A stretch of DNA of 64,000 nucleotides from Siphonodentalium dalli. Taxonomy: Eukaryota > Mollusca > Scaphopoda > Gadilida > Siphonodentaliidae. This document shows, piece by piece, positions 1-50,150 of this stretch. Within the stretch, counting starts at the first letter, position 1. The number at the start of each line of letters is the position of its first letter. The notes beneath the pieces were generated by a model. That model saw only the letters and a list, made by a program, of their open reading frames with translations. It was not told the DNA's origin and searched no databases. Location: positions 48,416,443 through 48,480,442 of the forward strand of contig CP136068.1 of assembly GCA_032622095.1 (NCBI GenBank), read 5' to 3'. The translations under genes were made by a program, and so were the position numbers.

Positions 1-3000
1 TGTATTCTGATCATAACAATAGATATAACAGAAACATATTGCAAAAGTCTATATAAATTGCTGCATGGATGCACATGTGGATATAATATAGTTGTATATA
101 GCAATAGTGTCTTGGTCTGTATATCATTATCTTTATCTGATAGACGTATAGCATTATTGTTATTGTGTCCCGCGTTATTGGTTTTGTGTTCAGACATTGG
201 ATATGTATTTTGACTGGCTATATAGGAATTAAGCCCCAAGAGTACTCAGATTGTAATACTTGTAGCGCATTTCGTATGAATAATGATAATTTTGGATAAG
301 TGTGGCTAATTTCAATATATTTGGCCTCTACAAGAAATATGATTTAAGATACTTTTCTCATAGTTATTTAAGTTCACTGCAGCGTAAAATTATTCTGTAC
401 TCGTCACCAATCTCGGAACTGCATAACGTGCATACTCGTCCAGTTAGTTAAATGTTGTTCCATGAACCTTAATCTATAGGAAGCTTGTGGATTCTAGTTC
501 GGAATTTGATGAGGCTGTGGGCTACCCGGTTATCGTTAGTGCTATATATGTTTACGGTTCGAACTTGTTTTAATAATTCTATAAAACGAGAATTTCCTAG
601 ATTTATCAATGGAGGTCCACCACTCTTGAATGAATAAATCACGCATCTTCTGGTTTGCGGAGCGCGTTAGGGGCTGGATAGTAGTCACCCTTTGGTTGGT
701 CCAAACATTGTACAAACAAGTTGTACGTGCAATTATTAAGAATAGACATTTTCTCGATGATTGTCAACAAACTTATAAATATAAATATATGACTCAAATA
801 ATACATATGGCAGAGTAGTGTCGTGCGTTAGGGGTGGAGCGCTAGAACCACCAGAAATTATGTAATCGTGTTGGTTCCGAACTATCCTCTAAATTACGCA
901 TTCGAATTGTACGATTGGTCTAATGGTGCGGGTGGCAGATGCCAAATGACGACATTTGAGTTATGGCTTGGTATAGGCACCAAATTTGATAAAACACGAA
1001 ATTAATAATAGAACCCGTATAAAATGCTTGATTACTGTTTAAAGACACAGAGCGTCCAGTTAGTGAATCAATTTTATGAGTGAGTACTCAGGCATTACCA
1101 TTTATGGAAGAATGTGAAATTCATCTCATGTTTACGAGAATACAAACGTGTTTATTATACCATTTCAAAATATATAAGTATGACATCTGAAAATATGATC
1201 AATAGTGAATATCTACTCCTTAGCTCCATCGGGATAAACGATACTTGCAATAAATCAATCCGACAACGTGAGTCACTGCAACTACTGCAATATCCTATAT
1301 GAATACATGATACATAAGTGATGCCTATGCGCATATATGATTACACTTTATGATAAACTACTTTATACAAGAGAGTAGTCTATTCTCATCAAATGGACAC
1401 GCCACGTTAACCTGGAAAACGCCGGGTAACCATGATATGTAGCATAAGTATATGCCGTTATATATAACATGGACACATGCACTCCGAAAACTAAAACAAA
1501 AGCTCTGGCGCAAAAAAAGGTACCAAGTATCAACAGGTTAACAGATCTATATGGTAGTAACAACAATACGCGGAATGTATTGATGTTGTTAAATCCGGAC
1601 CGACTAACAGCCACGTTGAATTATGCATATGGCTTTTAACGGCAAGCCAGAGTCATTCTTGGGTTGACATGAAATGTCAACTGCGGCGTCAATGGTGTTT
1701 TCGAAAGTTTTCTAAAGTATCTAAGACTCTTGTGGCCAGTTGTAAATATCGATTTTATACATAAGGTCTCGTCACAAATACCTTGAATGTCATTTACAGA
1801 TCGAGTTATTCGATCCACATAAAGTAATTGGTATCTTCCAGTGCACGACAACGTGTTGCTGTCAATCGATCATTTAGAAATGCGTTCATCTCTGTATAAT
1901 AAAATGTCATATCTCTTGTGCTGACAAAAGACCGGTGGGATTCAATTTAATATTCAGGAGGATATAATTATACCATAGCTGCGTCCTTTTCACCCATGGT
2001 CGGTATGGTGCATGGAGTGCAATCCTGCTATTAGTTATATGTGGCAAATATCGGCGATCGTCTGTTATGTTTAGGAAACTGTTTTAAGATAAAACATACG
2101 ATAGTGGTTTTGCTTTTGGTGGCTGTTTTTCGCATGAAATGTCATATGGATGATAGCGAACACATTCTGTGCCAATGCTGGGCCACTAATTGGGATGACT
2201 ACCAAATATTTAAATTAGTTGACATCACAGTTCATTTTGCATCTATAAAACCATTGTTGTGGTTTCTAACCAGTTGTATGAAGCCAGACTAACATTTCAT
2301 TCACGCTTTAGTTAATGCGAGGCCATGCAGTGATCATGAATTACTATTTCAATGTTTGACGTTTCGGGGAAAACATATCATAAACGTCGCGAGATAGAAC
2401 AGTATGTATAACAATTGAAATGGACCTTTGAACTTATCATGTTGACAAGCTTTCAGGTGTCTGATGTTATTTAAAGCAACACAAAACGCACAATATAATG
2501 CGCGTGCGTGCGATGTGCTGATGAGCAAGAAATCAACAAAATGGTACAATCGTTATCATACTGATGTGTTATAATATGACTCCTATTTTGTGCCAATTAT
2601 TTGCCTGTAATCGGAAGATATATATTTGGACTTGCAATTTGCCGTAATCTATCACATCAGTGGAACTTCAATGTGCACGACAATGCTCCTGCAATGTGCC
2701 GTACACCAGACAATTATATTATTCGGCAATAATTTTTATAATCAGCAGAAAAACTTATATTTGGTGCATTGTAAAAAAGTATGGATATATCACATGCCGC
2801 GTGTACGGTGTATAGCAACATTAAACAACTCAATCGTTTTAAGTATAAGATATTCGGTATTTAATAGACCAAGTTACAGACGGTCCGTGGAATTTCACAT
2901 AATAATCATGATTTCTCAGGACGAACTTTGTACCAGGATTTATAGATAATATAGATGATAGAAGTATAGTACAATTGTGATTTTTTTTCGAGTAATTTGA

Positions 3001-3487
3001 TGTTGCCAACTTGTCTTCGTACTTAGATATAATCAACTTTATGTGAAAAATATCGAAATTTAATGTAAACAAACGCAATTCCTGCACAGTTTTCGGTGTT
3101 TGAGACACCAGATGGATGAAGACGGGAGTAAGTTCAGACTGAGAGCACAGTGTTTGGCATGAGTATAATGTATGTGACTTCAAAACAACAAAAGATATTC
3201 GACTGAATTATATCATATGCCGTTCTGGGTTGAGGTATAATACAAAAGTGTGTAACGATGTGCATAGCGGCCTTCTTCTTGAATCCGTAATATACCGGTT
3301 AAAATGGTCATATGAATTCCGAGTAACTGTTAACATAGTATGAATACCCCACTTGTGAGGGTGTCATGATTATTCCATAGAAAGCTGTACATATAGTTAG
3401 CAGTTGATAAATGTCTAATAAAATTGGGGTGCAATGATTCCCCAATGAACGCCTCAATTCTGTTTCCATTTTATTTTATTACACGCA
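1..3487. other. Non-coding flank left of the satellite
   Basis: No coding exon, RNA gene or mobile element is recognised here. Open frames are all under 115 codons, overlap on both strands and show no domain-like composition. The sequence is AT-rich. An AATAAA lies at 3418-3423, followed by a short inverted pair ATTGGGG/CCCCAAT at 3424-3447, but no gene upstream justifies calling a polyadenylation site. The last part runs directly into degenerate satellite sequence. Confidence 0.6.
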
Positions 3488-3542
3488 TTGAGCATGCCGG
3501 AAACTGCCACTCGACTGTTTTCGCAAACTTTGTCTGTTTTGG

Positions 3543-3622
3543 CGCGCGACAAAACTTCCGACATTATCGCATGTTTTGACACGTGCCGAAAAGCGACAGA
3601 AGCGACACAACATGCGACATTA
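3543..3622. repeat. Degenerate left edge of the 27-bp satellite
   Basis: Just before the first clean unit the sequence holds recognisable but diverged pieces of the unit, such as CCGACATTATCGCATGT near 3559 and GCGACATTATCTCACGTG near 3614. They have changed spacing and extra GCGACA words. This resembles the decayed border of a tandem array, where unequal exchange no longer homogenises copies. The right end has no comparable zone of decay. Confidence 0.6.
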
Positions 3623-4250
3623 TCTCACGTGTTGTCGCATTCAACAATATCTCATGTGTTGCCGCATTCGATATTATCTCACGTGTTGCCGCATTCGATA
3701 TTATCTCATGTGTTGCCGCATTCAACAATATCTCACGTGTTGCCGCATTCGATATTATCTCATGTGTTGCCGCATTCAACAATATCTCACGTGTTGCCGC
3801 ATTCGATATTATCTCATGTGTTGCCACATTCGATATTATCTCATGTGTTGCCGCATTCGATATTATCTCATGTGTTGCCGCATTCGATATTATCTCATGT
3901 GTTGCCACATTCGATATTATCTCATGTGTTGCCGCATTCGATATTATCTCATGTGTTGCCGCATTCGATATTATCTCATGTGTTGCCGCGTTCAACAATA
4001 TCTCACGTGTTGCCGCATTCGATATTATCTCACGTGTTGCCGCATTCGATATTATCTCATGTGTTGCCGCATTCAACAATATCTCACGTGTTGCCGCATT
4101 CGATATTATCTCACGTGTTGCCGCATTCGATATTATCTCATGTGTTGCCGCATTCAACAATATCTCACGTGTTGCCGCATTCGATATTATCTCATGTGTT
4201 GCCGCATTCAACAATATCTCACGTGTTGCCGCATTCGATATTATCTCATG

Positions 4251-4493
4251 TGTTGCCACATTCGATATTATCTCATGTGTTGCCGCATTCGATATTATCT
4301 CATGTGTTGCCGCATTCGATATTATCTCATGTGTTGCCACATTCGATATTATCTCATGTGTTGCCGCATTCGATATTATCTCATGTGTTGCCGCATTCGA
4401 TATTATCTCATGTGTTGCCACATTCGATATTATCTCATGTGTTGCCGCATTCGATATTATCTCATGTGTTGCCGCATTCGATATTATCTCATG
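4251..4493. repeat. 81-bp trimeric sub-array inside the satellite
   Basis: The rare CCAC state (unit position 15 = A) recurs at 4251, 4332 and 4413, exactly 81 bp apart, each followed by two CCGC units. The same CCAC spacing is seen at 3821 and 3902. This is a local three-unit higher-order repeat. Elsewhere CCAC occurs only near 6417 and 6874. Confidence 0.85.
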
Positions 4494-7087
4494 TGTTGTC
4501 GCATTCGACATTATCTCACGTGTTGCCGCATTCGATATTATCTCATGTGTTGTCGCATTCAACAATATCTCATGTGTTGTCGCATTCGATATTATCTCAT
4601 GTGTTGTCGCATTCGATATTATCTCATGTGTTGTCGCATTCGATATTATCTCATGTGTTGTCGCATTCGATATTATCTCATGTGTTGCCGCATTCGATAT
4701 TATCTCATGTGTTGTCGCATTCGACATTATCTCATGTGTTGTCGCATTCGATATTATCTCATGTGTTGTCGCATTCGATATTATCTCATGTGTTGTCGCA
4801 TTCGATATTATCTCATGTGTTGTCGCATTCGACATTATCTCATGTGTTGTCGCATTCAACATTATCTCATGTGTTGTCGCATTCAATATTATCTCATGTG
4901 TTGTCGCATTCGACATTATCTCATGTGTTGTCGCATTCAACATTATCTCATGTGTTGTCGCATTCAATATTATCTCATGTGTTGTCGCATTCGACATTAT
5001 CTCATGTGTTGTCGCATTCGACATTATCTCATGTGTTGTCGCATTCAATATTATCTCATGTGTTGTCGCATTCGATATTATCTCATGTGTTGTCGCATTC
5101 AACATTATCTCATGTGTTGTCGCATTCAATATTATCTCATGTGTTGTCGCATTCGACATTATCTCACGTGTTGTCGCATTCGATATTATCTCATGTGTTG
5201 TCGCATTCGACATTATCTCATGTGTTGCCGCATTCGATATTATCTCATGTGTTGTCGCATTCGACATTATCTCACGTGTTGTCGCATTCGATATTATCTC
5301 ACGTGTTGTCGCATTCGATATTATCTCATGTGTTGTCGCATTCGACATTATCTCACGTGTTGTCGCATTCGATATTATCTCATGTGTTGTCGCATTCGAC
5401 ATTATCTCACGTGTTGTCGCATTCGATATTATCTCATGTGTTGTCGCATTCGACATTATCTCATGTGTTGCCGCATTCGATATTATCTCATGTGTTGCCG
5501 CATTCGATATTATCTCATGTGTTGTCGCATTCGATATTATCTCATGTGTTGTCGCATTCAACATTATCTCATGTGTTGCCGCATTCGATATTATCTCATG
5601 TGTTGTCGCATTCGATATTATCTCACGTGTTGTCGCATTCGACATTATCTCATGTGTTGCCGCATTCGATATTATCTCATGTGTTGCCGCATTCAATATT
5701 ATCTCATGTGTTGTCGCATTCGATATTATCTCATGTGTTGTCGCATTCGATATTATCTCATGTGTTGCCGCATTCGATATTATCTCATGTGTTGTCGCAT
5801 TCGATATTATCTCATGTGTTGTCGCATTCAACATTATCTCACGTGTTGCCGCATTCGATATTATCTCATGTGTTGCCGCATTCGATATTATCTCATGTGT
5901 TGCCGCATTCGATATTATCTCATGTGTTGTCGCATTCGATATTATCTCATGTGTTGTCGCATTCGACATTATCTCATGTGTTGTCGCATTCGACATTATC
6001 TCATGTGTTGTCGCATTCGATATTATCTCATGTGTTGTCGCATTCGATATTATCTCATGTGTTGTCGCATTCGATATTATCTCATGTGTTGCCGCATTCG
6101 ATATTATCTCATGTGTTGTCGCATTCGATATTATCTCATGTGTTGCCGCATTCGATATTATCTCATGTGTTGTCGCATTCGATATTATCTCATGTGTTGT
6201 CGCATTCGACATTATCTCATGTGTTGTCGCATTCGATATTATCTCATGTGTTGTCGCATTCGATATTATCTCACGTGTTGTCGCATTCGACATTATCTCA
6301 TGTGTTGTCGCATTCGATATTATCTCATGTGTTGCCGCATTCGATATTATCTCATGTGTTGCCGCATTCGATATTATCTCATGTGTTGCCGCATTCGATA
6401 TTATCTCATGTGTTGCCACATTCGATATTATCTCATGTGTTGCCGCATTCGATATTATCTCATGTGTTGCCGCATTCGATATTATCTCATGTGTTGTCGC
6501 ATTCGACATTATCTCACGTGTTGCCGCATTCGATATTATCTCATGTGTTGTCGCATTCGATATTATCTCATGTGTTGTCGCATTCAACATTATCTCACGT
6601 GTTGTCGCATTCAACAATATCTCATGTGTTGCCGCATTCAACATTATCTCACGTGTTGTCGCATTCAACATTATCTCACGTGTTGTCGCATTCAACAATA
6701 TCTCATGTGTTGCCGCATTCAACATTATCTCATGTGTTGTCGCATTCAACATTATCTCACGTGTTGTCGCATTCGACATTATCTCATGTGTTGCCGCATT
6801 CGATATTATCTCATGTGTTGTCGCATTCGACATTATCTCACGTGTTGTCGCATTCGACATTATCTCATGTGTTGCCACATTCGATATTATCTCATGTGTT
6901 GTCGCATTCAACAATATCTCATGTGTTGTCGCATTCGACATTATCTCACGTGTTGTCGCATTCAACAATATCTCACGTGTTGCCGCATTCGATATTATCT
7001 CATGTGTTGTCGCATTCGATATTATCTCATGTGTTGCCGCATTCGATATTATCTCATGTGTTGTCGCATTCGACATTATCTCATGTG

Positions 7088-7858
7088 TTGCCGCATTCAA
7101 TATTATCTCATGTGTTGTCGCATTCGATATTATCTCACGTGTTGTCGCATTCGATATTATCTCATGTGTTGTCGCATTCGACATTATCTCATGTGTTGTC
7201 GCATTCAACAATATCTCATGTGTTGCCGCATTCAATATTATCTCATGTGTTGTCGCATTCGATATTATCTCACGTGTTGTCGCATTCGATATTATCTCAC
7301 GTGTTGTCGCATTCGATATTATCTCATGTGTTGCCGCATTCAATATTATCTCACGTGTTGTCGCATTCGATATTATCTCACGTGTTGTCGCATTCGATAT
7401 TATCTCATGTGTTGTCGCATTCGATATTATCTCACGTGTTGTCGCATTCGATATTATCTCATGTGTTGTCGCATTCGATATTATCTCATGTGTTGTCGCA
7501 TTCAACATTATCTCATGTGTTGTCGCATTCAACATTATCTCATGTGTTGTCGCATTCGACATTATCTCATGTGTTGTCGCATTCGACATTATCTCATGTG
7601 TTGCCGCATTCAATATTATCTCATGTGTTGTCGCATTCGATATTATCTCACGTGTTGTCGCATTCGATATTATCTCATGTGTTGTCGCATTCGACATTAT
7701 CTCATGTGTTGTCGCATTCAACAATATCTCATGTGTTGCCGCATTCAATATTATCTCATGTGTTGTCGCATTCGATATTATCTCACGTGTTGTCGCATTC
7801 GATATTATCTCACGTGTTGTCGCATTCGATATTATCTCATGTGTTGCCGCATTCAATA
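7088..7858. repeat. 513-bp higher-order duplication in the satellite
   Basis: The ordered pattern of unit variants from 7088 to about 7345 is repeated base for base from 7601 to about 7858. The offset is 513 bp, or 19 units. The block includes an AACAAT unit followed by a GCC/TTCAA unit and a run of CACGTG units, so chance agreement is unlikely. Confidence 0.85.
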
Positions 7859-8227
7859 TTATCTCATGTGTTGTCGCATTCGATATTATCTCATGTGTTG
7901 TCGCATTCGACATTATCTCATGTGTTGTCGCATTCAACAATATCTCATGTGTTGTCGCATTCGACATTATCTCATGTGTTGCCGCATTCGATATTATCTC
8001 ATGTGTTGCCGCATTCGATATTATCTCACGTGTTGTCGCATTCGATATTATCTCACGTGTTGTCGCATTCGATATTATCTCATGTGTTGTCGCATTCGAT
8101 ATTATCTCACGTGTTGTCGCATTCGACATTATCTCATGTGTTGCCGCATTCGACATTATCTCATGTGTTGTCGCATTCGATATTATCTCATGTGTTGTCG
8201 CATTCGATATTATCTCATGTGTTGTCG

Positions 8228-9276
8228 CATTCGACATTATCTCATGTGTTGTCGCATTCGATATTATCTCATGTGTTGCCGCATTCAATATTATCTCATG
8301 TGTTGTCGCATTCGATATTATCTCATGTGTTGCCGCATTCGATATTATCTCATGTGTTGTCGCATTCGACATTATCTCATGTGTTGTCGCATTCGATATT
8401 ATCTCATGTGTTGTCGCATTCAACATTATCTCATGTGTTGTCGCATTCGACATTATCTCATGTGTTGTCGCATTCGATATTATCTCATGTGTTGTCGCAT
8501 TCGATATTATCTCATGTGTTGTCGCATTCGATATTATCTCATGTGTTGTCGCATTCAACATTATCTCATGTGTTGTCGCATTCGACATTATCTCATGTGT
8601 TGTCGCATTCGATATTATCTCATGTGTTGTCGCATTCAACATTATCTCATGTGTTGTCGCATTCGACATTATCTCATGTGTTGTCGCATTCGATATTATC
8701 TCATGTGTTGTCGCATTCGATATTATCTCATGTGTTGTCGCATTCGATATTATCTCATGTGTTGTCGCATTCGATATTATCTCATGTGTTGTCGCATTCA
8801 ACATTATCTCATGTGTTGTCGCATTCAACATTATCTCATGTGTTGTCGCATTCGACATTATCTCATGTGTTGTCGCATTCGATATTATCTCATGTGTTGC
8901 CGCATTCAATATTATCTCATGTGTTGTCGCATTCGATATTATCTCATGTGTTGCCGCATTCGATATTATCTCATGTGTTGTCGCATTCGACATTATCTCA
9001 TGTGTTGTCGCATTCGATATTATCTCATGTGTTGTCGCATTCAACATTATCTCATGTGTTGTCGCATTCGACATTATCTCATGTGTTGTCGCATTCGATA
9101 TTATCTCATGTGTTGTCGCATTCGATATTATCTCATGTGTTGTCGCATTCGATATTATCTCATGTGTTGTCGCATTCAACATTATCTCATGTGTTGTCGC
9201 ATTCGACATTATCTCATGTGTTGTCGCATTCGATATTATCTCATGTGTTGTCGCATTCAACATTATCTCATGTGTT
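8228..9276. repeat. 621-bp higher-order duplication in the satellite
   Basis: About sixteen consecutive units from 8228 match in variant order those from 8849, an offset of 621 bp or 23 units. The match ends near 8655 and 9276, where one copy has GAC and the other GAT at unit position 23. Confidence 0.8.
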
Positions 9277-12200
9277 GTCGCATTCGATATTATCTCATGT
9301 GTTGTCGCATTCGACATTATCTCACGTGTTGCCGCATTCGATATTATCTCATGTGTTGTCGCATTCGACATTATCTCATGTGTTGCCGCATTCAATATTA
9401 TCTCATGTGTTGTCGCATTCGACATTATCTCATGTGTTGCCGCATTCGATATTATCTCATGTGTTGTCGCATTCGACATTATCTCATGTGTTGTCGCATT
9501 CGATATTATCTCATGTGTTGTCGCATTCGACATTATCTCACGTGTTGCCGCATTCGATATTATCTCACGTGTTGTCGCATTCGATATTATCTCACGTGTT
9601 GTCGCATTCAACATTATCTCATGTGTTGTCGCATTCGATATTATCTCATGTGTTGCCGCATTCGATATTATCTCATGTGTTGTCGCATTCGACATTATCT
9701 CATGTGTTGTCGCATTCGACATTATCTCATGTGTTGTCGCATTCGATATTATCTCACGTGTTGTCGCATTCGATATTATCTCACGTGTTGTCGCATTCGA
9801 TATTATCTCATGTGTTGTCGCATTCGATATTATCTCACGTGTTGTCGCATTCGATATTATCTCACGTGTTGTCGCATTCAACATTATCTCATGTGTTGTC
9901 GCATTCGATATTATCTCACGTGTTGTCGCATTCGATATTATCTCATGTGTTGTCGCATTCGACATTATCTCACGTGTTGTCGCATTCGATATTATCTCAC
10001 GTGTTGTCGCATTCGATATTATCTCACGTGTTGTCGCATTCAACATTATCTCATGTGTTGTCGCATTCGATATTATCTCACGTGTTGTCGCATTCGATAT
10101 TATCTCACGTGTTGTCGCATTCAACATTATCTCATGTGTTGTCGCATTCGATATTATCTCATGTGTTGTCGCATTCGACATTATCTCATGTGTTGTCGCA
10201 TTCGATATTATCTCATGTGTTGTCGCATTCAACATTATCTCATGTGTTGTCGCATTCGATATTATCTCACGTGTTGTCGCATTCAACATTATCTCATGTG
10301 TTGTCGCATTCGACATTATCTCATGTGTTGTCGCATTCAACATTATCTCATGTGTTGTCGCATTCAATATTATCTCATGTGTTGTCGCATTCAACATTAT
10401 CTCATGTGTTGTCGCATTCGACATTATCTCATGTGTTGTCGCATTCGATATTATCTCATGTGTTGCCGCATTCGATATTATCTCATGTGTTGTCGCATTC
10501 GACATTATCTCATGTGTTGTCGCATTCGACATTATCTCATGTGTTGTCGCATTCGATATTATCTCACGTGTTGTCGCATTCGATATTATCTCATGTGTTG
10601 TCGCATTCAACATTATCTCATGTGTTGTCGCATTCGACATTATCTCACGTGTTGTCGCATTCGATATTATCTCATGTGTTGCCGCATTCGACATTATCTC
10701 ATGTGTTGTCGCATTCGACATTATCTCATGTGTTGTCGCATTCGACATTATCTCATGTGTTGTCGCATTCGACATTATCTCATGTGTTGTCGCATTCAAC
10801 ATTATCTCACGTGTTGTCGCATTCGACATTATCTCATGTGTTGTCGCATTCGACATTATCTCATGTGTTGTCGCATTCGATATTATCTCATGTGTTGTCG
10901 CATTCGACATTATCTCATGTGTTGTCGCATTCGATATTATCTCATGTGTTGTCGCATTCGACATTATCTCATGTGTTGTCGCATTCGACATTATCTCACG
11001 TGTTGTCGCATTCGATATTATCTCATGTGTTGTCGCATTCGATATTATCTCACGTGTTGTCGCATTCGATATTATCTCATGTGTTGCCGCATTCGATATT
11101 ATCTCATGTGTTGTCGCATTCGATATTATCTCATGTGTTGTCGCATTCAACATTATCTCATGTGTTGTCGCATTCGACATTATCTCATGTGTTGTCGCAT
11201 TCGATATTATCTCATGTGTTGTCGCATTCGATATTATCTCATGTGTTGTCGCATTCAACATTATCTCATGTGTTGTCGCATTCGACATTATCTCATGTGT
11301 TGTCGCATTCGACATTATCTCATGTGTTGTCGCATTCGATATTATCTCATGTGTTGTCGCATTCGACATTATCTCATGTGTTGTCGCATTCGATATTATC
11401 TCATGTGTTGTCGCATTCGACATTATCTCATGTGTTGTCGCATTCGACATTATCTCATGTGTTGTCGCATTCGATATTATCTCATGTGTTGTCGCATTCA
11501 ACATTATCTCATGTGTTGTCGCATTCGATATTATCTCATGTGTTGTCGCATTCAACATTATCTCATGTGTTGCCGCATTCAATATTATCTCATGTGTTGT
11601 CGCATTCAACAATATCTCATGTGTTGTCGCATTCGATATTATCTCATGTGTTGTCGCATTCAACATTATCTCATGTGTTGTCGCATTCGACATTATCTCA
11701 TGTGTTGTCGCATTCGACATTATCTCATGTGTTGCCGCATTCAATATTATCTCATGTGTTGCCGCATTCGATATTATCTCATGTGTTGTCGCATTCGACA
11801 TTATCTCATGTGTTGTCGCATTCGACATTATCTCATGTGTTGTCGCATTCAACATTATCTCATGTGTTGTCGCATTCGACATTATCTCATGTGTTGTCGC
11901 ATTCGACATTATCTCATGTGTTGTCGCATTCGATATTATCTCATGTGTTGTCGCATTCGATATTATCTCATGTGTTGTCGCATTCGATATTATCTCATGT
12001 GTTGTCGCATTCAATATTATCTCATGTGTTGTCGCATTCGACATTATCTCATGTGTTGCCGCATTCAATATTATCTCATGTGTTGTCGCATTCGACATTA
12101 TCTCATGTGTTGTCGCATTCGACATTATCTCATGTGTTGTCGCATTCGACATTATCTCATGTGTTGCCGCATTCGATATTATCTCATGTGTTGTCGCATT

Positions 12201-15200
12201 CGACATTATCTCATGTGTTGCCGCATTCGACATTATCTCATGTGTTGTCGCATTCGACATTATCTCATGTGTTGCCGCATTCGACATTATCTCATGTGTT
12301 GTCGCATTCGATATTATCTCATGTGTTGTCGCATTCGACATTATCTCATGTGTTGTCGCATTCGACATTATCTCATGTGTTGCCGCATTCGACATTATCT
12401 CATGTGTTGTCGCATTCGATATTATCTCATGTGTTGTCGCATTCGATATTATCTCATGTGTTGTCGCATTCGACATTATCTCATGTGTTGTCGCATTCGA
12501 CATTATCTCATGTGTTGTCGCATTCGATATTATCTCATGTGTTGTCGCATTCGACATTATCTCATGTGTTGTCGCATTCGACATTATCTCATGTGTTGTC
12601 GCATTCGACATTATCTCATGTGTTGTCGCATTCGACATTATCTCATGTGTTGTCGCATTCGACATTATCTCATGTGTTGTCGCATTCGACATTATCTCAT
12701 GTGTTGTCGCATTCGACATTATCTCATGTGTTGCCGCATTCGACATTATCTCATGTGTTGTTGCATTCGACATTATCTCATGTGTTGTCGCATTCGACAT
12801 TATCTCATGTGTTGTCGCATTCGACATTATCTCATGTGTTGTCGCATTCGACATTATCTCATGTGTTGTCGCATTCGACATTATCTCATGTGTTGTCGCA
12901 TTCGATATTATCTCATGTGTTGTCGCATTCGATATTATCTCATGTGTTGTCGCATTCAACAATATCTCATGTGTTGTCGCATTCGATATTATCTCATGTG
13001 TTGCCGCATTCGACAATATCTCATGTGTTGTCGCATTCGACATTATCTCATGTGTTGTCGCATTCGACATTATCTCATGTGTTGTCGCATTCGATATTAT
13101 CTCATGTGTTGTCGCATTCGACATTATCTCACGTGTTGTCGCATTCGACATTATCTCATGTGTTGTCGCATTCGACATTATCTCATGTGTTGTCGCATTC
13201 GACATTATCTCATGTGTTGTCGCATTCGACATTATCTCATGTGTTGTCGCATTTGATATTATCTCATGTGTTGTCGCATTCGACATTATCTCACGTGTTG
13301 TCGCATTCGACATTATCTCATGTGTTGTCGCATTCGATATTATCTCACGTGTTGTCGCATTCGATATTATCTCATGTGTTGTCGCATTCAACATTATCTC
13401 ATGTGTTGCCGCATTCGATATTATCTCACGTGTTGTCGCATTCGACATTATCTCATGTGTTGTCGCATTCGACATTATCTCATGTGTTGTCGCATTCGAT
13501 ATTATCTCATGTGTTGTCGCATTCGATATTATCTCATGTGTTGCCGCATTCGACATTATCTCATGTGTTGTCGCATTCGACATTATCTCATGTGTTGTCG
13601 CATTCGATATTATCTCATGTGTTGTCGCATTCGATATTATCTCATGTGTTGTCGCATTCGACATTATCTCATGTGTTGTCGCATTCGATATTATCTCACG
13701 TGTTGTCGCATTCGATATTATCTCATGTGTTGCCGCATTCGATATTATCTCATGTGTTGTCGCATTCGACATTATCTCATGTGTTGTCGCATTCGACATT
13801 ATCTCATGTGTTGTCGCATTCGATATTATCTCATGTGTTGTCGCATTCGATATTATCTCATGTGTTGCCGCATTCGACATTATCTCATGTGTTGTCGCAT
13901 TCGACATTATCTCATGTGTTGTCGCATTCGATATTATCTCATGTGTTGTCGCATTCGATATTATCTCATGTGTTGCCGCATTCGACATTATCTCATGTGT
14001 TGTCGCATTCGACATTATCTCATGTGTTGTCGCATTCGACATTATCTCATGTGTTGTCGCATTCGATATTATCTCATGTGTTGCCGCATTCGATATTATC
14101 TCATGTGTTGTCGCATTCGACATTATCTCATGTGTTGTCGCATTCGACATTATCTCATGTGTTGTCGCATTCGACATTATCTCATGTGTTGTCGCATTCG
14201 ACATTATCTCATGTGTTGCCGCATTCGACATTATCTCATGTGTTGTCGCATTCGATATTATCTCATGTGTTGTCGCATTCGACATTATCTCATGTGTTGT
14301 CGCATTCGACATTATCTCATGTGTTGCCGCATTCGATATTATCTCATGTGTTGTCGCATTCGATATTATCTCATGTGTTGCCGCATTCGATATTATCTCA
14401 TGTGTTGTCGCATTCGACATTATCTCATGTGTTGCCGCATTCGATATTATCTCATGTGTTGCCGCATTCGATATTATCTCATGTGTTGTCGCATTCGACA
14501 TTATCTCATGTGTTGCCGCATTCGATATTATCTCATGTGTTGTCGCATTCGACATTATCTCATGTGTTGTCGCATTCGACATTATCTCATGTGTTGTCGC
14601 ATTCGACATTATCTCATGTGTTGTCGCATTCGACATTATCTCACGTGTTGTCGCATTCGATATTATCTCATGTGTTGTCGCATTCGATATTATCTCATGT
14701 GTTGTCGCATTCGATATTATCTCATGTGTTGCCGCATTCGACATTATCTCATGTGTTGTCGCATTCGATATTATCTCATGTGTTGTCGCATTCGATATTA
14801 TCTCATGTGTTGCCGCATTCGACATTATCTCATGTGTTGTCGCATTCGACATTATCTCATGTGTTGTCGCATTCGACATTATCTCATGTGTTGTCGCATT
14901 CGATATTATCTCATGTGTTGCCGCATTCGACATTATCTCATGTGTTGTCGCATTCGACATTATCTCATGTGTTGTCGCATTCGATATTATCTCATGTGTT
15001 GTCGCATTCGATATTATCTCATGTGTTGTCGCATTCGATATTATCTCATGTGTTGTCGCATTCGATATTATCTCACGTGTTGCCGCATTCGACATTATCT
15101 CACGTGTTGTCGCATTCGATATTATCTCATGTGTTGTCGCATTCAACAATATCTCATGTGTTGTCGCATTCGATATTATCTCATGTGTTGCCGCATTCGA

Positions 15201-17164
15201 CATTATCTCATGTGTTGTCGCATTCGATATTATCTCATGTGTTGTCGCATTCGATATTATCTCATGTGTTGCCGCATTCGACATTATCTCATGTGTTGCC
15301 GCATTCGATATTATCTCACGTGTTGTCGCATTCGATATTATCTCATGTGTTGTCGCATTCGACATTATCTCACGTGTTGTCGCATTCGATATTATCTCAT
15401 GTGTTGTCGCATTCAACATTATCTCATGTGTTGCCGCATTCGATATTATCTCATGTGTTGCCGCATTCGACATTATCTCATGTGTTGCCGCATTCGATAT
15501 TATCTCATGTGTTGTCGCATTCGATATTATCTCATGTGTTGTCGCATTCGACATTATCTCATGTGTTGTCGCATTCGACATTATCTCACGTGTTGTCGCA
15601 TTCGATATTATCTCATGTGTTGTCGCATTCAACAATATCTCATGTGTTGTCGCATTCGATATTATCTCATGTGTTGCCGCATTCGATATTATCTCATGTG
15701 TTGCCGCATTCGATATTATCTCACGTGTTGTCGCATTCGATATTATCTCATGTGTTGTCGCATTCGATATTATCTCATGTGTTGCCGCATTCGACATTAT
15801 CTCATGTGTTGTCGCATTCGATATTATCTCATGTGTTGCCGCATTCGACATTATCTCATGTGTTGCCGCATTCGACATTATCTCATGTGTTGTCGCATTC
15901 GATATTATCTCATGTGTTGCCGCATTCGACATTATCTCATGTGTTGTCGCATTCGATATTATCTCATGTGTTGCCGCATTCGATATTATCTCATGTGTTG
16001 CCGCATTCGACATTATCTCATGTGTTGTCGCATTCGATATTATCTCATGTGTTGTCGCATTCGATATTATCTCATGTGTTGTCGCATTCGATATTATCTC
16101 ATGTGTTGCCGCATTCGACATTATCTCACGTGTTGTCGCATTCAACATTATCTCATGTGTTGTCGCATTCGATATTATCTCATGTGTTGTCGCATTCGAT
16201 ATTATCTCATGTGTTGTCGCATTCAACATTATCTCATGTGTTGTCGCATTCGATATTATCTCATGTGTTGTCGCATTCGATATTATCTCATGTGTTGTCG
16301 CATTCGACATTATCTCATGTGTTGTCGCATTCGATATTATCTCATGTGTTGTCGCATTCGATATTATCTCATGTGTTGTCGCATTCGATATTATCTCATG
16401 TGTTGTCGCATTCGATATTATCTCATGTGTTGTCGCATTCAACAATATCTCACGTGTTGTCGCATTCGATATTATCTCATGTGTTGTCGCATTCAACAAT
16501 ATCTCACGTGTTGTCGCATTCGATATTATCTCATGTGTTGTCGCATTCGACATTATCTCATGTGTTGTCGCATTCGATATTATCTCATGTGTTGTCGCAT
16601 TCGATATTATCTCACGTGTTGTCGCATTCGATATTATCTCATGTGTTGTCGCATTCGACATTATCTCATGTGTTGCCGCATTCGATATTATCTCATGTGT
16701 TGTCGCATTCGATATTATCTCATGTGTTGTCGCATTCGACATTATCTCATGTGTTGTCGCATTCGATATTATCTCATGTGTTGTCGCATTCGATATTATC
16801 TCATGTGTTGTCGCATTCAACAATATCTCACGTGTTGTCGCATTCGATATTATCTCATGTGTTGTCGCATTCGATATTATCTCATGTGTTGTCGCATTCG
16901 ATATTATCTCATGTGTTGTCGCATTCGACATTATCTCACGTGTTGCCGCATTCAACAATATCTCATGTGTTGTCGCATTCGATATTATCTCATGTGTTGT
17001 CGCATTCAACAATATCTCATGTGTTGTCGCATTCGATATTATCTCATGTGTTGCCGCATTCGATATTATCTCATGTGTTGCCGCATTCGATATTATCTCA
17101 CGTGTTGTCGCATTCGATATTATCTCATGTGTTGCCGCATTCGATATTATCTCATGTGTTGCCG

Positions 17165-18180
17165 CATTCGATATTATCTCATGTGTTGTCGCATTCGACA
17201 TTATCTCACGTGTTGCCGCATTCGATATTATCTCATGTGTTGTCGCATTCGATATTATCTCATGTGTTGTCGCATTCGATATTATCTCATGTGTTGTCGC
17301 ATTCGACATTATCTCATGTGTTGCCGCATTCAATATTATCTCATGTGTTGTCGCATTCGATATTATCTCATGTGCTGTCGCATTCGACATTATCTCATGT
17401 GTTGCCGCATTCAATATTATCTCATGTGTTGTCGCATTCGATATTATCTCATGTGTTGCCGCATTCGATATTATCTCATGTGTTGCCGCATTCGATATTA
17501 TCTCATGTGTTGCCGCATTCAATATTATCTCATGTGTTGTCGCATTCAATATTATCTCATGTGTTGCCGCATTCGATATTATCTCATGTGTTGCCGCATT
17601 CGATATTATCTCATGTGTTGCCGCATTCGATATTATCTCATGTGTTGCCGCATTCGATATTATCTCATGTGTTGTCGCATTCGATATTATCTCATGTGTT
17701 GTCGCATTCGATATTATCTCATGTGTTGTCGCATTCGACATTATCTCACGTGTTGCCGCATTCGATATTATCTCATGTGTTGTCGCATTCGATATTATCT
17801 CATGTGTTGTCGCATTCGATATTATCTCATGTGTTGTCGCATTCGACATTATCTCATGTGTTGCCGCATTCAATATTATCTCATGTGTTGTCGCATTCGA
17901 TATTATCTCATGTGTTGTCGCATTCGACATTATCTCATGTGTTGCCGCATTCAATATTATCTCATGTGTTGTCGCATTCGATATTATCTCATGTGTTGCC
18001 GCATTCGATATTATCTCATGTGTTGCCGCATTCGATATTATCTCATGTGTTGCCGCATTCAATATTATCTCATGTGTTGTCGCATTCGATATTATCTCAT
18101 GTGTTGCCGCATTCGATATTATCTCATGTGTTGCCGCATTCGATATTATCTCATGTGTTGCCGCATTCGATATTATCTCA
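17165..18180. repeat. 540-bp higher-order duplication in the satellite
   Basis: Two blocks, 17165-17640 and 17705-18180, are offset by 540 bp (20 units) and differ at only two bases in the part compared. One is the private T-to-C change at 17375 and the other a G/A state at 17547 versus 18087. The private change therefore arose after the block was duplicated. Confidence 0.88.
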
Positions 18181-21100
18181 CGTGTTGTCGCATTCGATAT
18201 TATCTCATGTGTTGTCGCATTCGACATTATCTCATGTGTTGCCGCATTCAATATTATCTCATGTGTTGTCGCATTCGATATTATCTCATGTGTTGCCGCA
18301 TTCGATATTATCTCATGTGTTGTCGCATTCGACATTATCTCACGTGTTGCCGCATTCAATATTATCTCATGTGTTGTCGCATTCGATATTATCTCATGTG
18401 TTGCCGCATTCGATATTATCTCATGTGTTGTCGCATTCGACATTATCTCATGTGTTGCCGCATTCAATATTATCTCATGTGTTGTCGCATTCGATATTAT
18501 CTCATGTGTTGTCGCATTCGACATTATCTCATGTGTTGTCGCATTCGATATTATCTCATGTGTTGCCGCATTCAATATTATCTCATGTGTTGTCGCATTC
18601 GACATTATCTCATGTGTTGTCGCATTCGACATTATCTCACGTGTTGTCGCATTCGACATTATCTCATGTGTTGCCGCATTCAATATTATCTCATGTGTTG
18701 TCGCATTCGACATTATCTCATGTGTTGTCGCATTCGACATTATCTCACGTGTTGTCGCATTCGATATTATCTCATGTGTTGTCGCATTCGATATTATCTC
18801 ATGTGTTGTCGCATTCGATATTATCTCATGTGTTGTCGCATTCGATATTATCTCATGTGTTGCCGCATTCAATATTATCTCATGTGTTGTCGCATTCGAT
18901 ATTATCTCATGTGTTGTCGCATTCGATATTATCTCATGTGTTGTCGCATTCGACATTATCTCACGTGTTGCCGCATTCAATATTATCTCATGTGTTGTCG
19001 CATTCGATATTATCTCATGTGTTGTCGCATTCGATATTATCTCATGTGTTGCCGCATTCGACATTATCTCATGTGTTGCCGCATTCAATATTATCTCATG
19101 TGTTGTCGCATTCGATATTATCTCATGTGTTGTCGCATTCGACATTATCTCACGTGTTGCCGCATTCAATATTATCTCATGTGTTGTCGCATTCGATATT
19201 ATCTCATGTGTTGCCGCATTCGATATTATCTCACGTGTTGTCGCATTCGATATTATCTCATGTGTTGCCGCATTCGATATTATCTCATGTGTTGCCGCAT
19301 TCGATATTATCTCATGTGTTGTCGCATTCGACATTATCTCACGTGTTGCCGCATTCGATATTATCTCATGTGTTGTCGCATTCGATATTATCTCATGTGT
19401 TGTCGCATTCGATATTATCTCATGTGTTGTCGCATTCGACATTATCTCATGTGTTGTCGCATTCGACATTATCTCATGTGTTGTCGCATTCGATATTATC
19501 TCATGTGTTGTCGCATTCGACATTATCTCATGTGTTGCCGCATTCAATATTATCTCATGTGTTGTCGCATTCGATATTATCTCATGTGTTGTCGCATTCG
19601 ACATTATCTCATGTGTTGCCGCATTCAATATTATCTCATGTGTTGTCGCATTCGATATTATCTCATGTGTTGTCGCATTCGACATTATCTCATGTGTTGC
19701 CGCATTCAATATTATCTCATGTGTTGTCGCATTCGATATTATCTCATGTGTTGCCGCATTCGATATTATCTCATGTGTTGTCGCATTCAACAATATCTCA
19801 TGTGTTGTCGCATTCGATATTATCTCATGTGTTGCCGCATTCGATATTATCTCATGTGTTGTCGCATTCGATATTATCTCACGTGTTGTCGCATTCGACA
19901 TTATCTCACGTGTTGTCGCATTCGATATTATCTCATGTGTTGCCGCATTCAACATTATCTCAAGTGTTGTCGCATTCGACATTATCTCATGTGTTGTCGC
20001 ATTCGATATTATCTCATGTGTTGTCGCATTCAACAATATCTCATGTGTTGTCGCATTCGATATTATCTCATGTGTTGCCGCATTCGATATTATCTCATGT
20101 GTTGCCGCATTCGATATTATCTCACGTGTTGCCGCATTCAATATTATCTCATGTGTTGTCGCATTCGATATTATCTCATGTGTTGTCGCATTCGACATTA
20201 TCTCACGTGTTGCCGCATTCAACATTATCTCACGTGTTGTCGCATTCGATATTATCTCATGTGTTGCCGCATTCGACATTATCTCACGTGTTGCCGCATT
20301 CGATATTATCTCATGTGTTGTCGCATTCGATATTATCTCATGTGTTGTCGCATTCGATATTATCTCATGTGTTGTCGCATTCGATATTATCTCATGTGTT
20401 GTCGCATTCGATATTATCTCACGTGTTGCCGCATTCAACATTATCTCACGTGTTGTCGCATTCGATATTATCTCATGTGTTGCCGCATTCGACATTATCT
20501 CACGTGTTGCCGCATTCGATATTATCTCATGTGTTGTCGCATTCGATATTATCTCATGTGTTGTCGCATTCGACATTATCTCATGTGTTGTCGCATTCAA
20601 CATTATCTCATGTGTTGTCGCATTCGACATTATCTCATGTGTTGTCGCATTCGATATTATCTCATGTGTTGTCGCATTCGACATTATCTCATGTGTTGTC
20701 GCATTCGATATTATCTCATGTGTTGCCGCATTCGACATTATCTCACGTGTTGCCGCATTCAACATTATCTCACGTGTTGTCGCATTCGATATTATCTCAT
20801 GTGTTGCCGCATTCGACATTATCTCACGTGTTGCCGCATTCAACATTATCTCACGTGTTGTCGCATTCGATATTATCTCATGTGTTGTCGCATTCGACAT
20901 TATCTCACGTGTTGCCGCATTCAACATTATCTCACGTGTTGTCGCATTCGATATTATCTCATGTGTTGCCGCATTCGATATTATCTCATGTGTTGCCGCA
21001 TTCGATATTATCTCATGTGTTGTCGCATTCGACATTATCTCACGTGTTGCCGCATTCGATATTATCTCATGTGTTGTCGCATTCGACATTATCTCACGTG

Positions 21101-22819
21101 TTGCCGCATTCAACATTATCTCATGTGTTGTCGCATTCGATATTATCTCATGTGTTGTCGCATTCGATATTATCTCATGTGTTGTCGCATTCGATATTAT
21201 CTCATGTGTTGTCGCATTCGATATTATCTCATGTGTTGTCGCATTCGACATTATCTCATGTGTTGTCGCATTCGATATTATCTCATGTGTTGTCGCATTC
21301 GACATTATCTCATGTGTTGCCGCATTCGATATTATCTCATGTGTTGCCGCATTCAATATTATCTCATGTGTTGCCGCATTCAATATTATCTCATGTGTTG
21401 CCGCATTCAATATTATCTCATGTGTTGTCGCATTCGATATTATCTCATGTGTTGTCGCATTCGATATTATCTCATGTGTTGTCGCATTCGACATTATCTC
21501 ATGTGTTGTCGCATTCGATATTATCTCATGTGTTGTCGCATTCGACATTATCTCATGTGTTGCCGCATTCGATATTATCTCATGTGTTGCCGCATTCAAT
21601 ATTATCTCATGTGTTGTCGCATTCGATATTATCTCATGTGTTGTCGCATTCGATATTATCTCATGTGTTGTCGCATTCGACATTATCTCATGTGTTGCCG
21701 CATTCAATATTATCTCATGTGTTGTCGCATTCGATATTATCTCATGTGTTGCCGCATTCGATATTATCTCACGTGTTGTCGCATTCGACATTATCTCACG
21801 TGTTGCCGCATTCAATATTATCTCATGTGTTGTCGCATTCGACATTATCTCACGTGTTGTCGCATTCGACATTATCTCACGTGTTGTCGCATTCGATATT
21901 ATCTCATGTGTTGCCGCATTCGATATTATCTCATGTGTTGCCGCATTCGATATTATCTCATGTGTTGCCGCATTCGATATTATCTCATGTGTTGCCGCAT
22001 TCGATATTATCTCATGTGTTGTCGCATTCGACATTATCTCATGTGTTGTCGCATTCAATATTATCTCATGTGTTGTCGCATTCAACATTATCTCATGTGT
22101 TGCCGCATTCGATATTATCTCATGTGTTGTCGCATTCGATATTATCTCATGTGTTGTCGCATTCGACATTATCTCATGTGTTGTCGCATTCGATATTATC
22201 TCATGTGTTGTCGCATTCAACATTATCTCATGTGTTGTCGCATTCGACATTATCTCATGTGTTGTCGCATTCAACATTATCTCATGTGTTGCCGCATTCG
22301 ATATTATCTCATGTGTTGTCGCATTCGACATTATCTCATGTGTTGTCGCATTCGACATTATCTCATGTGTTGTCGCATTCGACATTATCTCATGTGTTGC
22401 CGCATTCGATATTATCTCATGTGTTGCCGCATTCGATATTATCTCATGTGTTGTCGCATTCGATATTATCTCATGTGTTGTCGCATTCGATATTATCTCA
22501 TGTGTTGCCGCATTCGATATTATCTCATGTGTTGCCGCATTCGATATTATCTCATGTGTTGCCGCATTCGATATTATCTCATGTGTTGTCGCATTCGATA
22601 TTATCTCATGTGTTGTCGCATTCGATATTATCTCATGTGTTGCCGCATTCGATATTATCTCATGTGTTGCCGCATTCGATATTATCTCATGTGTTGCCGC
22701 ATTCGATATTATCTCATGTGTTGCCGCATTCGATATTATCTCATGTGTTGTCGCATTCGACATTATCTCATGTGTTGTCGCATTCGACATTATCTCACGT
22801 GTTGCCGCATTCGATATTT

Positions 22820-23256
22820 CCGAAAATGTTACAGCTATGAATCTTCGCCAACACATCTACATCGACGACGACACATTACCGAAACTGGTGTTCCCATCTG
22901 AATTTTGTATAAACAACCGTTATTTATAATAATAATTCATAATAGCTTTGGCAAATGGCGGTAATTGTGTCACTATTGTAGTGTTATATTTATTTTTATT
23001 TGCAATACATTATTTCAAATCAAAATGAAATTTTCATTCACCAGTAAACATGTGGAATAATTTCAAACCGATGTGTCAAGATCTACCTGGGTTATTATTT
23101 TTTTCCTTCTCCACCAAGATATTTTCCACGTTGTTCGTAAACTAACTAATAACATTGCCGTGGCCTTAAATGTATAGTGATGTAAGTGTGCATATACCAA
23201 CAAAACACCACCATCATCATCATAATCGTCATCATCATCATCCAGCCTTGTCTCCT
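22820..23256. other. Unique sequence right of the satellite
   Basis: The array stops abruptly after GATATTT at 22819. The forward frames close at 22840, 22901 and 22929, with no splice donor or domain that would suggest a coding end. A short imperfect (CAT)n run lies at 23208-23243. Nothing else is recognised. Confidence 0.6.
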
Positions 23257-23614
23257 GAAAATAAGTTCATATTGAACTTATTTTCAAAACACAACTAAGC
23301 CCATATCGGCATATTTGAATCATTGCTACGCTCAATATGAGCCACTTTGGACGCCATCTTCATTACAAAAAAATTATCAAAGCGAAATTTAGCGGATTGT
23401 GGATATGTCATAGATGATATCTTCCTCTACAAAATGGTATAAAAACCAACTTAGTCCAAATTTGTTATAGGTTGACCCTAAAATTTGAGTTTATCGACCG
23501 GGCTATTAATTGACTTACCAGCTTTACGCTCTGTATAATCTGTTTTCATTTTGGCCCGCGCCAATACGAACCTATGTACATGTAAATATTTAGGTCCAGT
23601 ATGAACCTATTTTC
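23257..23614. mobile_element. MITE-like element, family A copy 1
   Basis: The ends are inverted repeats: about 21 bases at 23257-23277 match the reverse complement of 23594-23614 with three differences. The left end is itself a palindrome, GAAAATAAGTTCA then TAT then its complement. The element has no coding capacity and contains the word TTTTGGCCCGCGCCA near 23550, which recurs near 27795. A relative lies at 36161-36550. No target-site duplication is clear. Confidence 0.6.
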
Positions 23615-24968: not shown

Positions 24969-25061
24969 ATGAATATGAAGACTAAAAATCGTTTACCAAA
25001 ACGTTATGTAAAAACTCGCCTTGCAAATGTTCTCAATGTGGTACAGACGGTGATAGTAATT

Positions 25062-25337
25062 ATGTGCAAGTTTGCAGTGTTGGGAATATTCATGTTCAGC
25101 CACAGTGGATTGCAATGTCAAGCTCTCGATGAATCGCAAACTGAATTGGAAGCAATGGGACCAATCATGCAACCAACCGTCTCCAACATACTCCGATGTA
25201 ACAAACTTTGCGAGCGACAGCCTGATTGTGTATCGAGAGCTTACCATGTCGGTACAAGGGAATGTGTTCTGTTGAGAGCCAGATTCAACCAAACTCTACA
25301 GCTCAATCGAAAATGGCAGGCCAATAACATGGAAAAG
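25062..25337 (+). CDS. First exon of a secreted PAN/apple-domain protein (partial)
   Basis: The 92 codons encode the start of a secreted protein. Residues 1-21 form a classical signal peptide: a short basic start, the hydrophobic core FAVLGIFMF and a small-residue cleavage region ending CQA. Residues 46-68 carry a PAN/apple-like cysteine pattern (C46-x3-C50-x5-C56-x11-C68) followed by VLL. PAN domains mediate protein or carbohydrate contacts in extracellular proteins. N76-Q-T is a glycosylation sequon. I chose the ATG at 25062 because it makes the signal peptide compact. The frame extends in phase to an ATG at 24969, which would add 31 basic residues and might instead give a membrane anchor. 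The exon ends at AAG|GTAGGA (25337/25338), phase 0; read-through stops after four codons. The gene is incomplete here. It may join the downstream threonine-rich and lectin exons, but the phase 0 donor does not match their phase 1 acceptors. Confidence 0.6.
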
Positions 25338-29329: not shown

Positions 29330-29870
29330 GCATGGGTTGGTGGCCCGCCCAAATACCCATCAGAGTCACCCCAGCCTTCACCCGGGGGAGGGTAACGGCC
29401 ACCCTGAGAGGGTGGAGTATGGACTATTTTGGAGAACTGTAAGGATTTCGGCCAATTTGATAGTATGGGTGGGTGGCTCGCCCCAAATAACCCATAGAAA
29501 CACCCCACCCCTCACATCCGGGGGGGTACCACCGAGGGGGTGAATGTGGGATATGGACCATTTTCGAAACTGGTAAGGATTTCGGCCAATTGACGGCATG
29601 GATGGATGGCCCGCTCAAATGTCCCATAGAAACAGCCCACCCCTGAACGCTGGGGGAACCACACGGGAGGTGAACATGGGGTATGGACCATTTTCGAGAA
29701 CGGTAAGGATTTCGGTCAATTTGACTTCAGCAGTGTGGGTAGCCCGCTCCAACTACCCCCTATAAACACCCTCACCCGGAGGTACCACCCGAGGGGGTGA
29801 AATGGGGTATGGACCATTTTCGAGAACGGTGGGTGGCACATCCCAAATGCGCCCCATAGAAACACCCCAC
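29330..29870 (+). repeat. GC-rich minisatellite, forward arm
   Basis: Diverged units of roughly 95-135 bp repeat here. The word AAGGATTTCGG recurs at 29441, 29575 and 29705, and CATAGAAACACCCC-type words recur near 29500, 29630, 29770 and 29860. The region is far more GC-rich than its surroundings. Short frames on both strands are repeat shadows. Confidence 0.75.
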
Positions 29871-49318: not shown

Positions 49319-50150
49319 CAGACACCACCCACCCACCTGGACCTTGTAGCATAGAGTTTTCATACCACCACCGGGATAGATCATTATATTATATATAATT
49401 ATTGACAAACAAGGACGACATCTATGGTCAGTACCGTTGTTCATCTTCGGTGATCTGACAGATATATGGCAGATTTTGGTGCAGAACACAAACACGACGC
49501 ACGTGTAACCGGTTGCCGGAAATACAAATACGGCGTTTTTTCATATAGAACAGTCCGCTAGGGCTAGTCGAGTACGACTCACGGAAGGTAACGATTATTC
49601 CATTATATCATACATGTCATTCAACAGAATATCGAATAAGAGGTACTGACAACTAAGTCGTTTCCAACATCAAATAACACACCACACAGCTGACGTCGTA
49701 ATGCCCCACTGCGAATTATTACGTCATATGTTGTTCAGTGTGTCAAGATATGTGCTTCTGTGGATACGAGTTTGTTTAAAACATTTCTGTTTTTGCAGAA
49801 CTAAATTGACTTTTTCAAGTATATGATTAGCGGATTCAAAATTATATATATATACGTCCTTGTGTGGTTATCAGTAGATTCGTAAATACTGCGTTGCTGT
49901 CACAACGGTTAATGACTGCTTCATTTTAACGGAATCTCAAACAAACTGTTTTGTTATATTATGTCATGAATATGTGTTTTCATTTTCTTTTTTTACCTTA
50001 CATCCACATATTAATATGTATTACTCTCTTACTTCACAAATCATTGTCCCTATGTATCTTCAGAAAAGAGCCTGCAACCGCGCCGATGGAACCGTGATCA
50101 AATGAAAAAGCCTACCTACATATTATCTAGCACCATAAATTATCATCGAT
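49319..50150. other. Non-coding stretch before the LINE
   Basis: AT-rich, with no exon recognised. Part of it could be the 5' untranslated region of the LINE that follows, but I cannot place the element's 5' end. Confidence 0.4.

What the first reader, a model, noticed from the sequence alone, without database searches (positions are those of the whole stretch)
3623..22819. 711-unit, 19.2-kb satellite in perfect 27-bp register
The array keeps exactly one period from first to last unit: the distance between the first and last TCTCA is 710 times 27. In 19 kb there is no net indel and no inserted element, and I found only five single-base private variants. Most short-period arrays collect indels. 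This suggests a very recent expansion, strong homogenisation, or selection on length or phase. I do not recognise the unit as a described family.
Basis: seen in the sequence. Interest (0 to 1): 0.85.

Follow-up and report, generated by a model that had tools for sequence, protein, structure and literature searches.

The report
Giant minisatellite seeded by hairpin element
A 19-kb stretch made of 711 copies of one 27-letter unit is real, but it was found at only one place in this genome and appears to have grown from a piece of a scattered hairpin-forming repeat, so it is a large but ordinary kind of tandem repeat.

Summary
In detail: 711 units, 710 spacings of exactly 27 bp, 3611 to 22807. It is less uniform than described: 28 different unit sequences, six recurrent two-allele sites, five internal singletons.

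It is not a satellite family. An exact unit pattern hits 703 times in the 2.23-Gb assembly and the window alone holds 703. With up to 3 mismatches the count is 718 genome-wide against 711 in the window. It is a single-locus minisatellite.

Its seed can be seen. Unit 0 and 80-90 bp before it match a dispersed, hairpin-rich element family. The apparently private G in unit 0 is that family's usual base (28 of 31 stacked copies).

The perfect register needs no selection. At least eleven substitutions survive in the array; at this genome's indel-to-substitution ratio of roughly 0.08-0.15, about one indel is expected, so none is unremarkable. Local block duplications and similarity that decays with distance fit slippage or unequal exchange. 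No reading frame shows clear selection.

I file it as a very large new member of a known kind: a transposable-element-derived minisatellite.

The parts
3611..22807 (+). Array of 711 complete 27-bp units, all in one register and orientation
   Evidence: 710 of 710 TCTCA spacings are 27; TRF 3611-22818, 0% indels, 94% matches, reported with periods 54 and 81
22808..22818 (+). Partial last unit (11 bp)
   Evidence: Sequence and TRF end
3611..3637 (+). Unit 0, probable descendant of the founder (keeps ATGCGACATT as in the dispersed family)
   Evidence: Family pattern hit at 3610-3634 with 3 mismatches; G at this site in 28 of 31 stacked family copies
3521..3643 (+). Hairpin-rich module shared with dispersed elements; homology runs through unit 0 and 6 bp into unit 1
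   Evidence: Matches L036 over 3529-3643 (78%, E 2e-18), L018 over 3546-3635 (80%) and L019 over 3521-3623 (77%)
3554..3578 (+). First hairpin motif of the element, 2 mismatches from the family motif
3353..3450 (+). Module that also precedes the hairpin module at two other loci (C1:38.93 Mb, C6:8.66 Mb); contains TATTCCATA at 3371-3379
   Evidence: 83% and 80% identity; a third locus (C2:210.84 Mb) matches 3367-3429 only
3261..3345 (+). Single copy of a sequence that forms separate 61/62-bp tandem arrays elsewhere (C7:111.68 Mb, about 98 copies; C1:60.82 Mb, about 11 copies)
1809..3099 (+). Older dispersed repeat; longer copies 69-79% identical
   Evidence: (39 of 605 candidates scored)
22937..23171 (+). 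Old dispersed repeat after the array, copies 71-77%
   Evidence: 40 of 1,145 candidates scored
24969..25349 (+). Open frame with a PAN domain, 2.2 kb after the array, probably the first coding exon of a gene (inferred); member of a same-strand paralogue cluster (C8 48.1-48.5 Mb)
   Evidence: PF00024 E 1.5e-6, above its curated cut-off; paralogues

Best explanation
It is a single-locus, non-coding giant minisatellite that grew out of a copy of a dispersed, hairpin-forming (MITE- or foldback-like) element.

Shown: the flank up to and including unit 0 is homologous to that element family; no other array of the unit was found in the assembly; unit variants are arranged in locally duplicated blocks.

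Inferred: during replication or repair the copying strand passed the loop and 3' arm of the element's second hairpin (3617-3643, exactly 27 bp), then switched back to the loop start. This made a 27-bp duplication that lacks the opposing 5' arm. Slippage and unequal exchange (or break-induced copying) then enlarged it to 711 units, and block duplications spread and recombined the six common variants. The exact register needs no selection: the array has turned over faster than it has gathered point mutations and indels.
For: Single locus: 703 forward and 0 reverse exact pattern hits in 2.23 Gb against 703 in the window; with up to 3 mismatches 714 forward and 4 reverse (reversed-pattern control 2 and 0), window 711.

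Seed: a search with the left flank, without the array, led to L018, L019, L025 and L026. The family motif has 45 forward and 42 reverse hits on all nine contigs, control 0 and 0; two of them are window 3554-3578 and unit 0. L036 aligns over 3529-3643 and stops where the window jumps back to the loop. A dispersed copy (L032) is identical to the commonest unit at 25 of 27 positions. Left flank alignment score to the family is 84, against at most 29 for 30 shuffles.

Hairpins: two family copies fold far better than shuffles (z -7.35 and -6.15, 0 of 200 shuffles as good).

Turnover: exact repeated blocks of 16, 11 and 10 units, longest in 50 shuffles 8; unit identity falls from 0.226 at lags 1-5 to 0.144-0.147 beyond 160.

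Register: indel-to-substitution ratio in other repeats of this genome about 0.08-0.15.

Non-coding: at most 4 of 11 changes are synonymous in any frame, against 0.15-0.25 expected for random changes (no significance test run).
Against: The right flank just after the array (22808-22940) has no family similarity (score 25; 30 shuffles mean 23.8, largest 29), so only one side of the element is found.

The window's own copy of the hairpin module folds little better than shuffles (3540-3640, z -1.36), and three unit dimers only weakly (z -1.14 to -2.79); the hairpin must have been better when the array began, which is assumed.

Small tandem repeats in family copies are only suggestively enriched (14 of 35 element zones against 15 of 70 control zones, Fisher p = 0.063), and several of the 14 are not made of the family motif.

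The comparison array at C7 mixes 61- and 62-bp spacings, so a strict register is not universal here. The template-switch step rests on one alignment and at most 1-2 bp of microhomology. No raw reads or second individual were available.
Confidence: 0.78

Rival explanations
1. Coding repeat: the array encodes a protein of about 6,400 residues built of 9-residue repeats (HSILSHVLS frame).
For: 27 is a multiple of 3; one forward frame is open for 6,463 codons through the whole array.
Against: A second forward frame (6,449 codons) and one reverse frame (6,430) are open just as far, which follows from a stop-free unit. In the HSILSHVLS frame 3 of 6 recurrent sites and 1 of 5 singletons are synonymous, against 0.25 expected; no other frame exceeds 4 of 11. 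No Pfam match up to E 0.1 for 3449-4549, the only part scanned. Matches of 3449-5549 to factor V and Crov588 are most simply read as shared periodic composition.
Confidence: 0.04
2. Cis-regulatory VNTR: the array is kept because each unit carries a CANNTG site (CATGTG 600, CACGTG 110, CAAGTG 1), acting on the PAN-domain gene 2.2 kb downstream.
For: The site is present in 711 of 711 units; a PAN-domain frame lies at 24969-25349 in a paralogue cluster.
Against: A random 27-bp unit holds such a loose motif about one time in ten (arithmetic); one variable site lies inside the motif; no expression data.
Confidence: 0.06
3. Assembly artefact: true length or register differs and was smoothed by consensus.
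For: No reads could be inspected; long arrays of short units are hard to assemble.
Against: Unit variants lie in irregular order, and the longest exact repeat inside the array is 458 bp, far below long-read length, so the array can be resolved. Consensus polishing would hardly create 28 unit types.
Confidence: 0.08
4. Selection on length or phase keeps the register.
For: Zero indels in 19 kb, whereas a 61-bp array in the same genome has mixed spacing.
Against: Zero indels is expected with probability of about 0.2-0.4 given eleven surviving substitutions (counts).
Confidence: 0.03

Closest known systems
TE-derived minisatellites of the human genome (PMC3389668; abstract and section 3.4 read)
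   Same: Tandem repeats started inside transposable elements and enlarged by local duplication of units; the paper counts at least 7,276, or 23% of human minisatellites/satellites.
   Different: Here a palindrome-rich non-coding element is the source and the array is 711 units and 19.2 kb; of the paper's repeats that no known mechanism explains, the majority have only two units.
Tetris foldback transposon and TIR-220 satellite of Drosophila virilis (PMC4079207; abstract and the section on origin of TIR-220 read)
   Same: A foldback-like non-autonomous element supplied the building block of kb-size arrays; unequal crossing-over is named as a likely route of growth.
   Different: Units of about 220 bp that occur inside the element's terminal repeats; here 27 bp, one locus, and only the left side of the element remains beside the array.
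Single-locus large tandem repeats of mouse (PMC3218096; passages read)
   Same: Arrays over 3 kb found once in the reference genome; 56 arrays in 29 subfamilies are listed as single locus.
   Different: Organism; and here the source element is identified.

Membership tests
Single-locus minisatellite (VNTR) | Head-to-tail units of roughly 10-100 bp | tested here: met
   27-bp unit, 711 copies
Single-locus minisatellite (VNTR) | Found at one locus | tested here: met
   703 of 703 exact hits; 711 of 718 loose hits lie in the window
Single-locus minisatellite (VNTR) | Length differs among individuals | not testable with these tools
   One assembly only
Satellite DNA family | Abundant arrays at several loci or in heterochromatic blocks | tested here: not met
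   One locus in 2.23 Gb
TE-derived tandem repeat | Unit or flank homologous to a dispersed element | tested here: met
TE-derived tandem repeat | Array framed by both sides of the element | tested here: not met
   Right flank without family similarity
MITE or foldback element (the source family) | Palindromic, hairpin-forming body | tested here: met
   Two copies folded, z -7.35 and -6.15; the window's own copy only -1.36; majority line of 31 of 35 copies
MITE or foldback element (the source family) | Terminal inverted repeats | tested here: inconclusive
   TATGGAATA/TATTCCATA within 350 bp in outward orientation in 16 of 35 copies (two of them, L045 and L046, 99% identical to each other), at both ends in 5; inward in 2 of 35 (counted)
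MITE or foldback element (the source family) | Target-site duplication and a matching transposase | not tested
   -
Protein-coding repeat | Synonymous changes favoured | tested here: not met
   At most 4 of 11 in any frame

The most novel reading that the evidence does not exclude
A hairpin-rich element family repeatedly starts short tandem arrays by skipping one hairpin arm, and this locus is the one where such a start ran away to 19 kb within a PAN-gene cluster, giving a datable example of minisatellite birth with founder unit, element source and variant map all readable.
Probability: 0.25. Interest if true: 0.45.

Novelty: new member of a known kind. Interest (0 to 1): 0.25.

Why it matters
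How minisatellites start is poorly documented: the human survey says that the two established mechanisms explain only 6% of TE-derived tandem repeats (PMC3389668, section 3.4). Here the presumed founder unit, the dispersed source elements and 711 ordered descendants can all be read, so a hairpin-arm-skipping start and later block duplication can be tested in relatives. The array itself shows no sign of function in what was tested here.

Tried and rejected
Coding array: tested by frame, rejected. Array as cargo between terminal repeats of one mobile element: the left 1 kb against the right 1 kb, direct and inverted, scored 23 against shuffle means of about 24. RNA families: none at gathering threshold in the window. 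Selection on register: rejected on counts. Hairpin potential of the unit itself as the driver: weak. Enrichment of small tandem repeats in family copies: only suggestive, p = 0.063.

Organism: not settled. A paper search listed Hadrurus arizonensis, a scorpion whose abstract gives 2.23 Gb in nine chromosomes (PMC11126328; abstract and passages), which fits the size and contig number of G000. The abstract's N50 of 280 Mb does not fit G000, whose N50 from the contig lengths is 264 Mb, so this is an untested lead.

The mean unit-against-family score is partly circular, because those zones were chosen with a motif that resembles the unit; I rest the homology instead. DNA searches of the genome score only the best candidates (40 of 97; 40 of 784), so family size is a lower bound. 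The 35 family loci are 7 from the first flank and element searches (L018, L019, L025, L026, L028-L030), 7 pattern hits picked for likeness to the unit or flank and 1 perfect match, and 20 further pattern hits in list order, passing over one (C2:58517969). They are not a random sample of the 87 pattern hits. The stack leaves out 4 of the 35 (L025, L026, L029, L030).

Full report
Observation. The array is real and in exact register: 711 units, 710 of 710 spacings equal to 27, window 3611-22807 plus an 11-bp partial unit. Twenty-eight unit sequences occur. Six sites recur with two alleles; five internal singletons exist (units 14, 338, 357, 509, 605, counted from 0) and a sixth sits in unit 0. 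Of the ten pairs of the five commonest variable sites (positions 5, 7, 9, 17, 24), nine occur in all four combinations; positions 7 and 9 show only three.

Locus count. The window is C8:48416443-48480442 of a 2,226,750,531-base assembly in nine contigs. A 32-nt degenerate unit pattern matched 703 times forward and 0 times reverse genome-wide, and 703 times in the window. A 23-nt pattern with up to 3 mismatches matched 714 forward and 4 reverse (reversed-pattern control 2 and 0) against 711 in the window. That leaves seven hits elsewhere against two for the control. So it is one locus, not a satellite family.

Seed. Searching the genome with the left flank alone (3105-3612) gave matches to 3353-3450 at two loci (and to 3367-3429 at a third), and to parts of 3521-3610 at two more; 40 of 97 candidates were scored. 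Aligned with the first array bases included, four of these loci reach into unit 0. They share a palindrome-rich motif. A 25-nt form of it matched 45 forward and 42 reverse sites on all nine contigs with a control of 0 and 0; two of the sites are window 3554-3578 and unit 0. The majority line of 31 copies reads as a long hairpin with loop CATTA, followed by a second hairpin module. Two copies fold with z -7.35 and -6.15; the window's own, decayed copy gives only -1.36. Copy L036 aligns with window 3529-3643 at 78% (E 2e-18); there the window jumps back to the loop sequence, and 3617-3643 is exactly 27 bp. The base that looks private in unit 0 is G in 28 of 31 family copies, so unit 0 keeps the older state. 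A nine-base terminal motif flanks 16 of 35 copies in outward orientation, 5 of them at both ends, and 2 of 35 in inward orientation (counted). The family is MITE-like or foldback-like; target duplications were not tested.

Against the seed model: the right flank (22808-22940) is not family-like, and small tandem repeats in family copies are only suggestively more frequent than in controls (14 of 35 against 15 of 70, p = 0.063).

Growth. Exact unit-string repeats of 16, 11 and 10 units occur at lags 23, 16 and 19; the longest in 50 shuffles was 8. Unit identity falls with distance, from 0.226 at lags 1-5 to 0.144-0.147 beyond 160. One variant (A at position 26) occurs in seven units, all among the first 121. 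This is the pattern of local duplication and loss. The longest exact repeat is 458 bp, so long reads could resolve the array.

Register. Close pairs of other repeats in this genome show about 0.08 indel openings per mismatch (24 to 297, summed over the alignments above 82% identity, leaving out a second alignment of L045 with L046, overlapping alignments of L016 with L024, and the L020-L021 array pair), and 0.15 in one pair at 80% (31 to 207). At least eleven distinct substitutions survive in the array (six recurrent sites, five internal singletons). Expected surviving indels are therefore about one, and none has a probability of about 0.2-0.4. A 61-bp array elsewhere does mix 61- and 62-bp spacings, so a strict register is not universal, but it needs no selection here.

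Coding and context. Three frames stay open through the whole array because the unit lacks stops there; a fourth is broken by one singleton. None has more than 4 of 11 synonymous changes. A frame with a PAN domain lies at 24969-25349; paralogues on the same strand at about 48.10, 48.17, 48.21, 48.29 and 48.52 Mb make a cluster. The distance from array to this frame is 2.2 kb. Regulatory influence is possible but unsupported.

Known relatives. TE-derived minisatellites (PMC3389668, abstract and section 3.4), a foldback element feeding a satellite (PMC4079207, abstract and one section) and single-locus large arrays (PMC3218096, passages) are in print. A review of TEs as a source of tandem repeats (PMC9659126, passages) lists further cases. 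Unit and motif strings were not found in the paper library (0 papers), which is weak evidence of absence. I file the array as a new, unusually large member of a known kind.

Noticed in passing
window 3261-3345; L020 (C7:111678500-111687500), L021 (C1:60822500-60826500): A second sequence in the left flank is the monomer of a different tandem repeat, with about 98 copies of 61/62 bp at C7 and about 11 at C1; two sequences within 350 bp have thus been amplified, at different places.
   Followed up: partly
C8 48.10-48.52 Mb; window 24969-25349: Same-strand cluster of PAN-domain frames 49-53% identical to the one beside the array; the 48.52-Mb copy has an internal stop.
   Followed up: partly
window 23334-23510: Short dispersed repeat of about 170 bp, 87-89% identical in the 39 copies listed, with 5,798 first-look candidates in the genome.
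   Followed up: no
window 50139-53440 and 61416-62384: Broken frames that look LINE-like by eye; the second matches RVT_1 (E 1.7e-12), while the three pieces of the first that were scanned have no Pfam hit above cut-off.
   Followed up: no
window 29418-29827: 130-bp tandem repeat, 3.2 copies, in a G+C-richer stretch.
   Followed up: no
G000, whole assembly: Size and contig number fit the published scorpion Hadrurus arizonensis assembly (2.23 Gb, nine chromosomes), but the N50 does not (264 against 280 Mb).
   Followed up: partly
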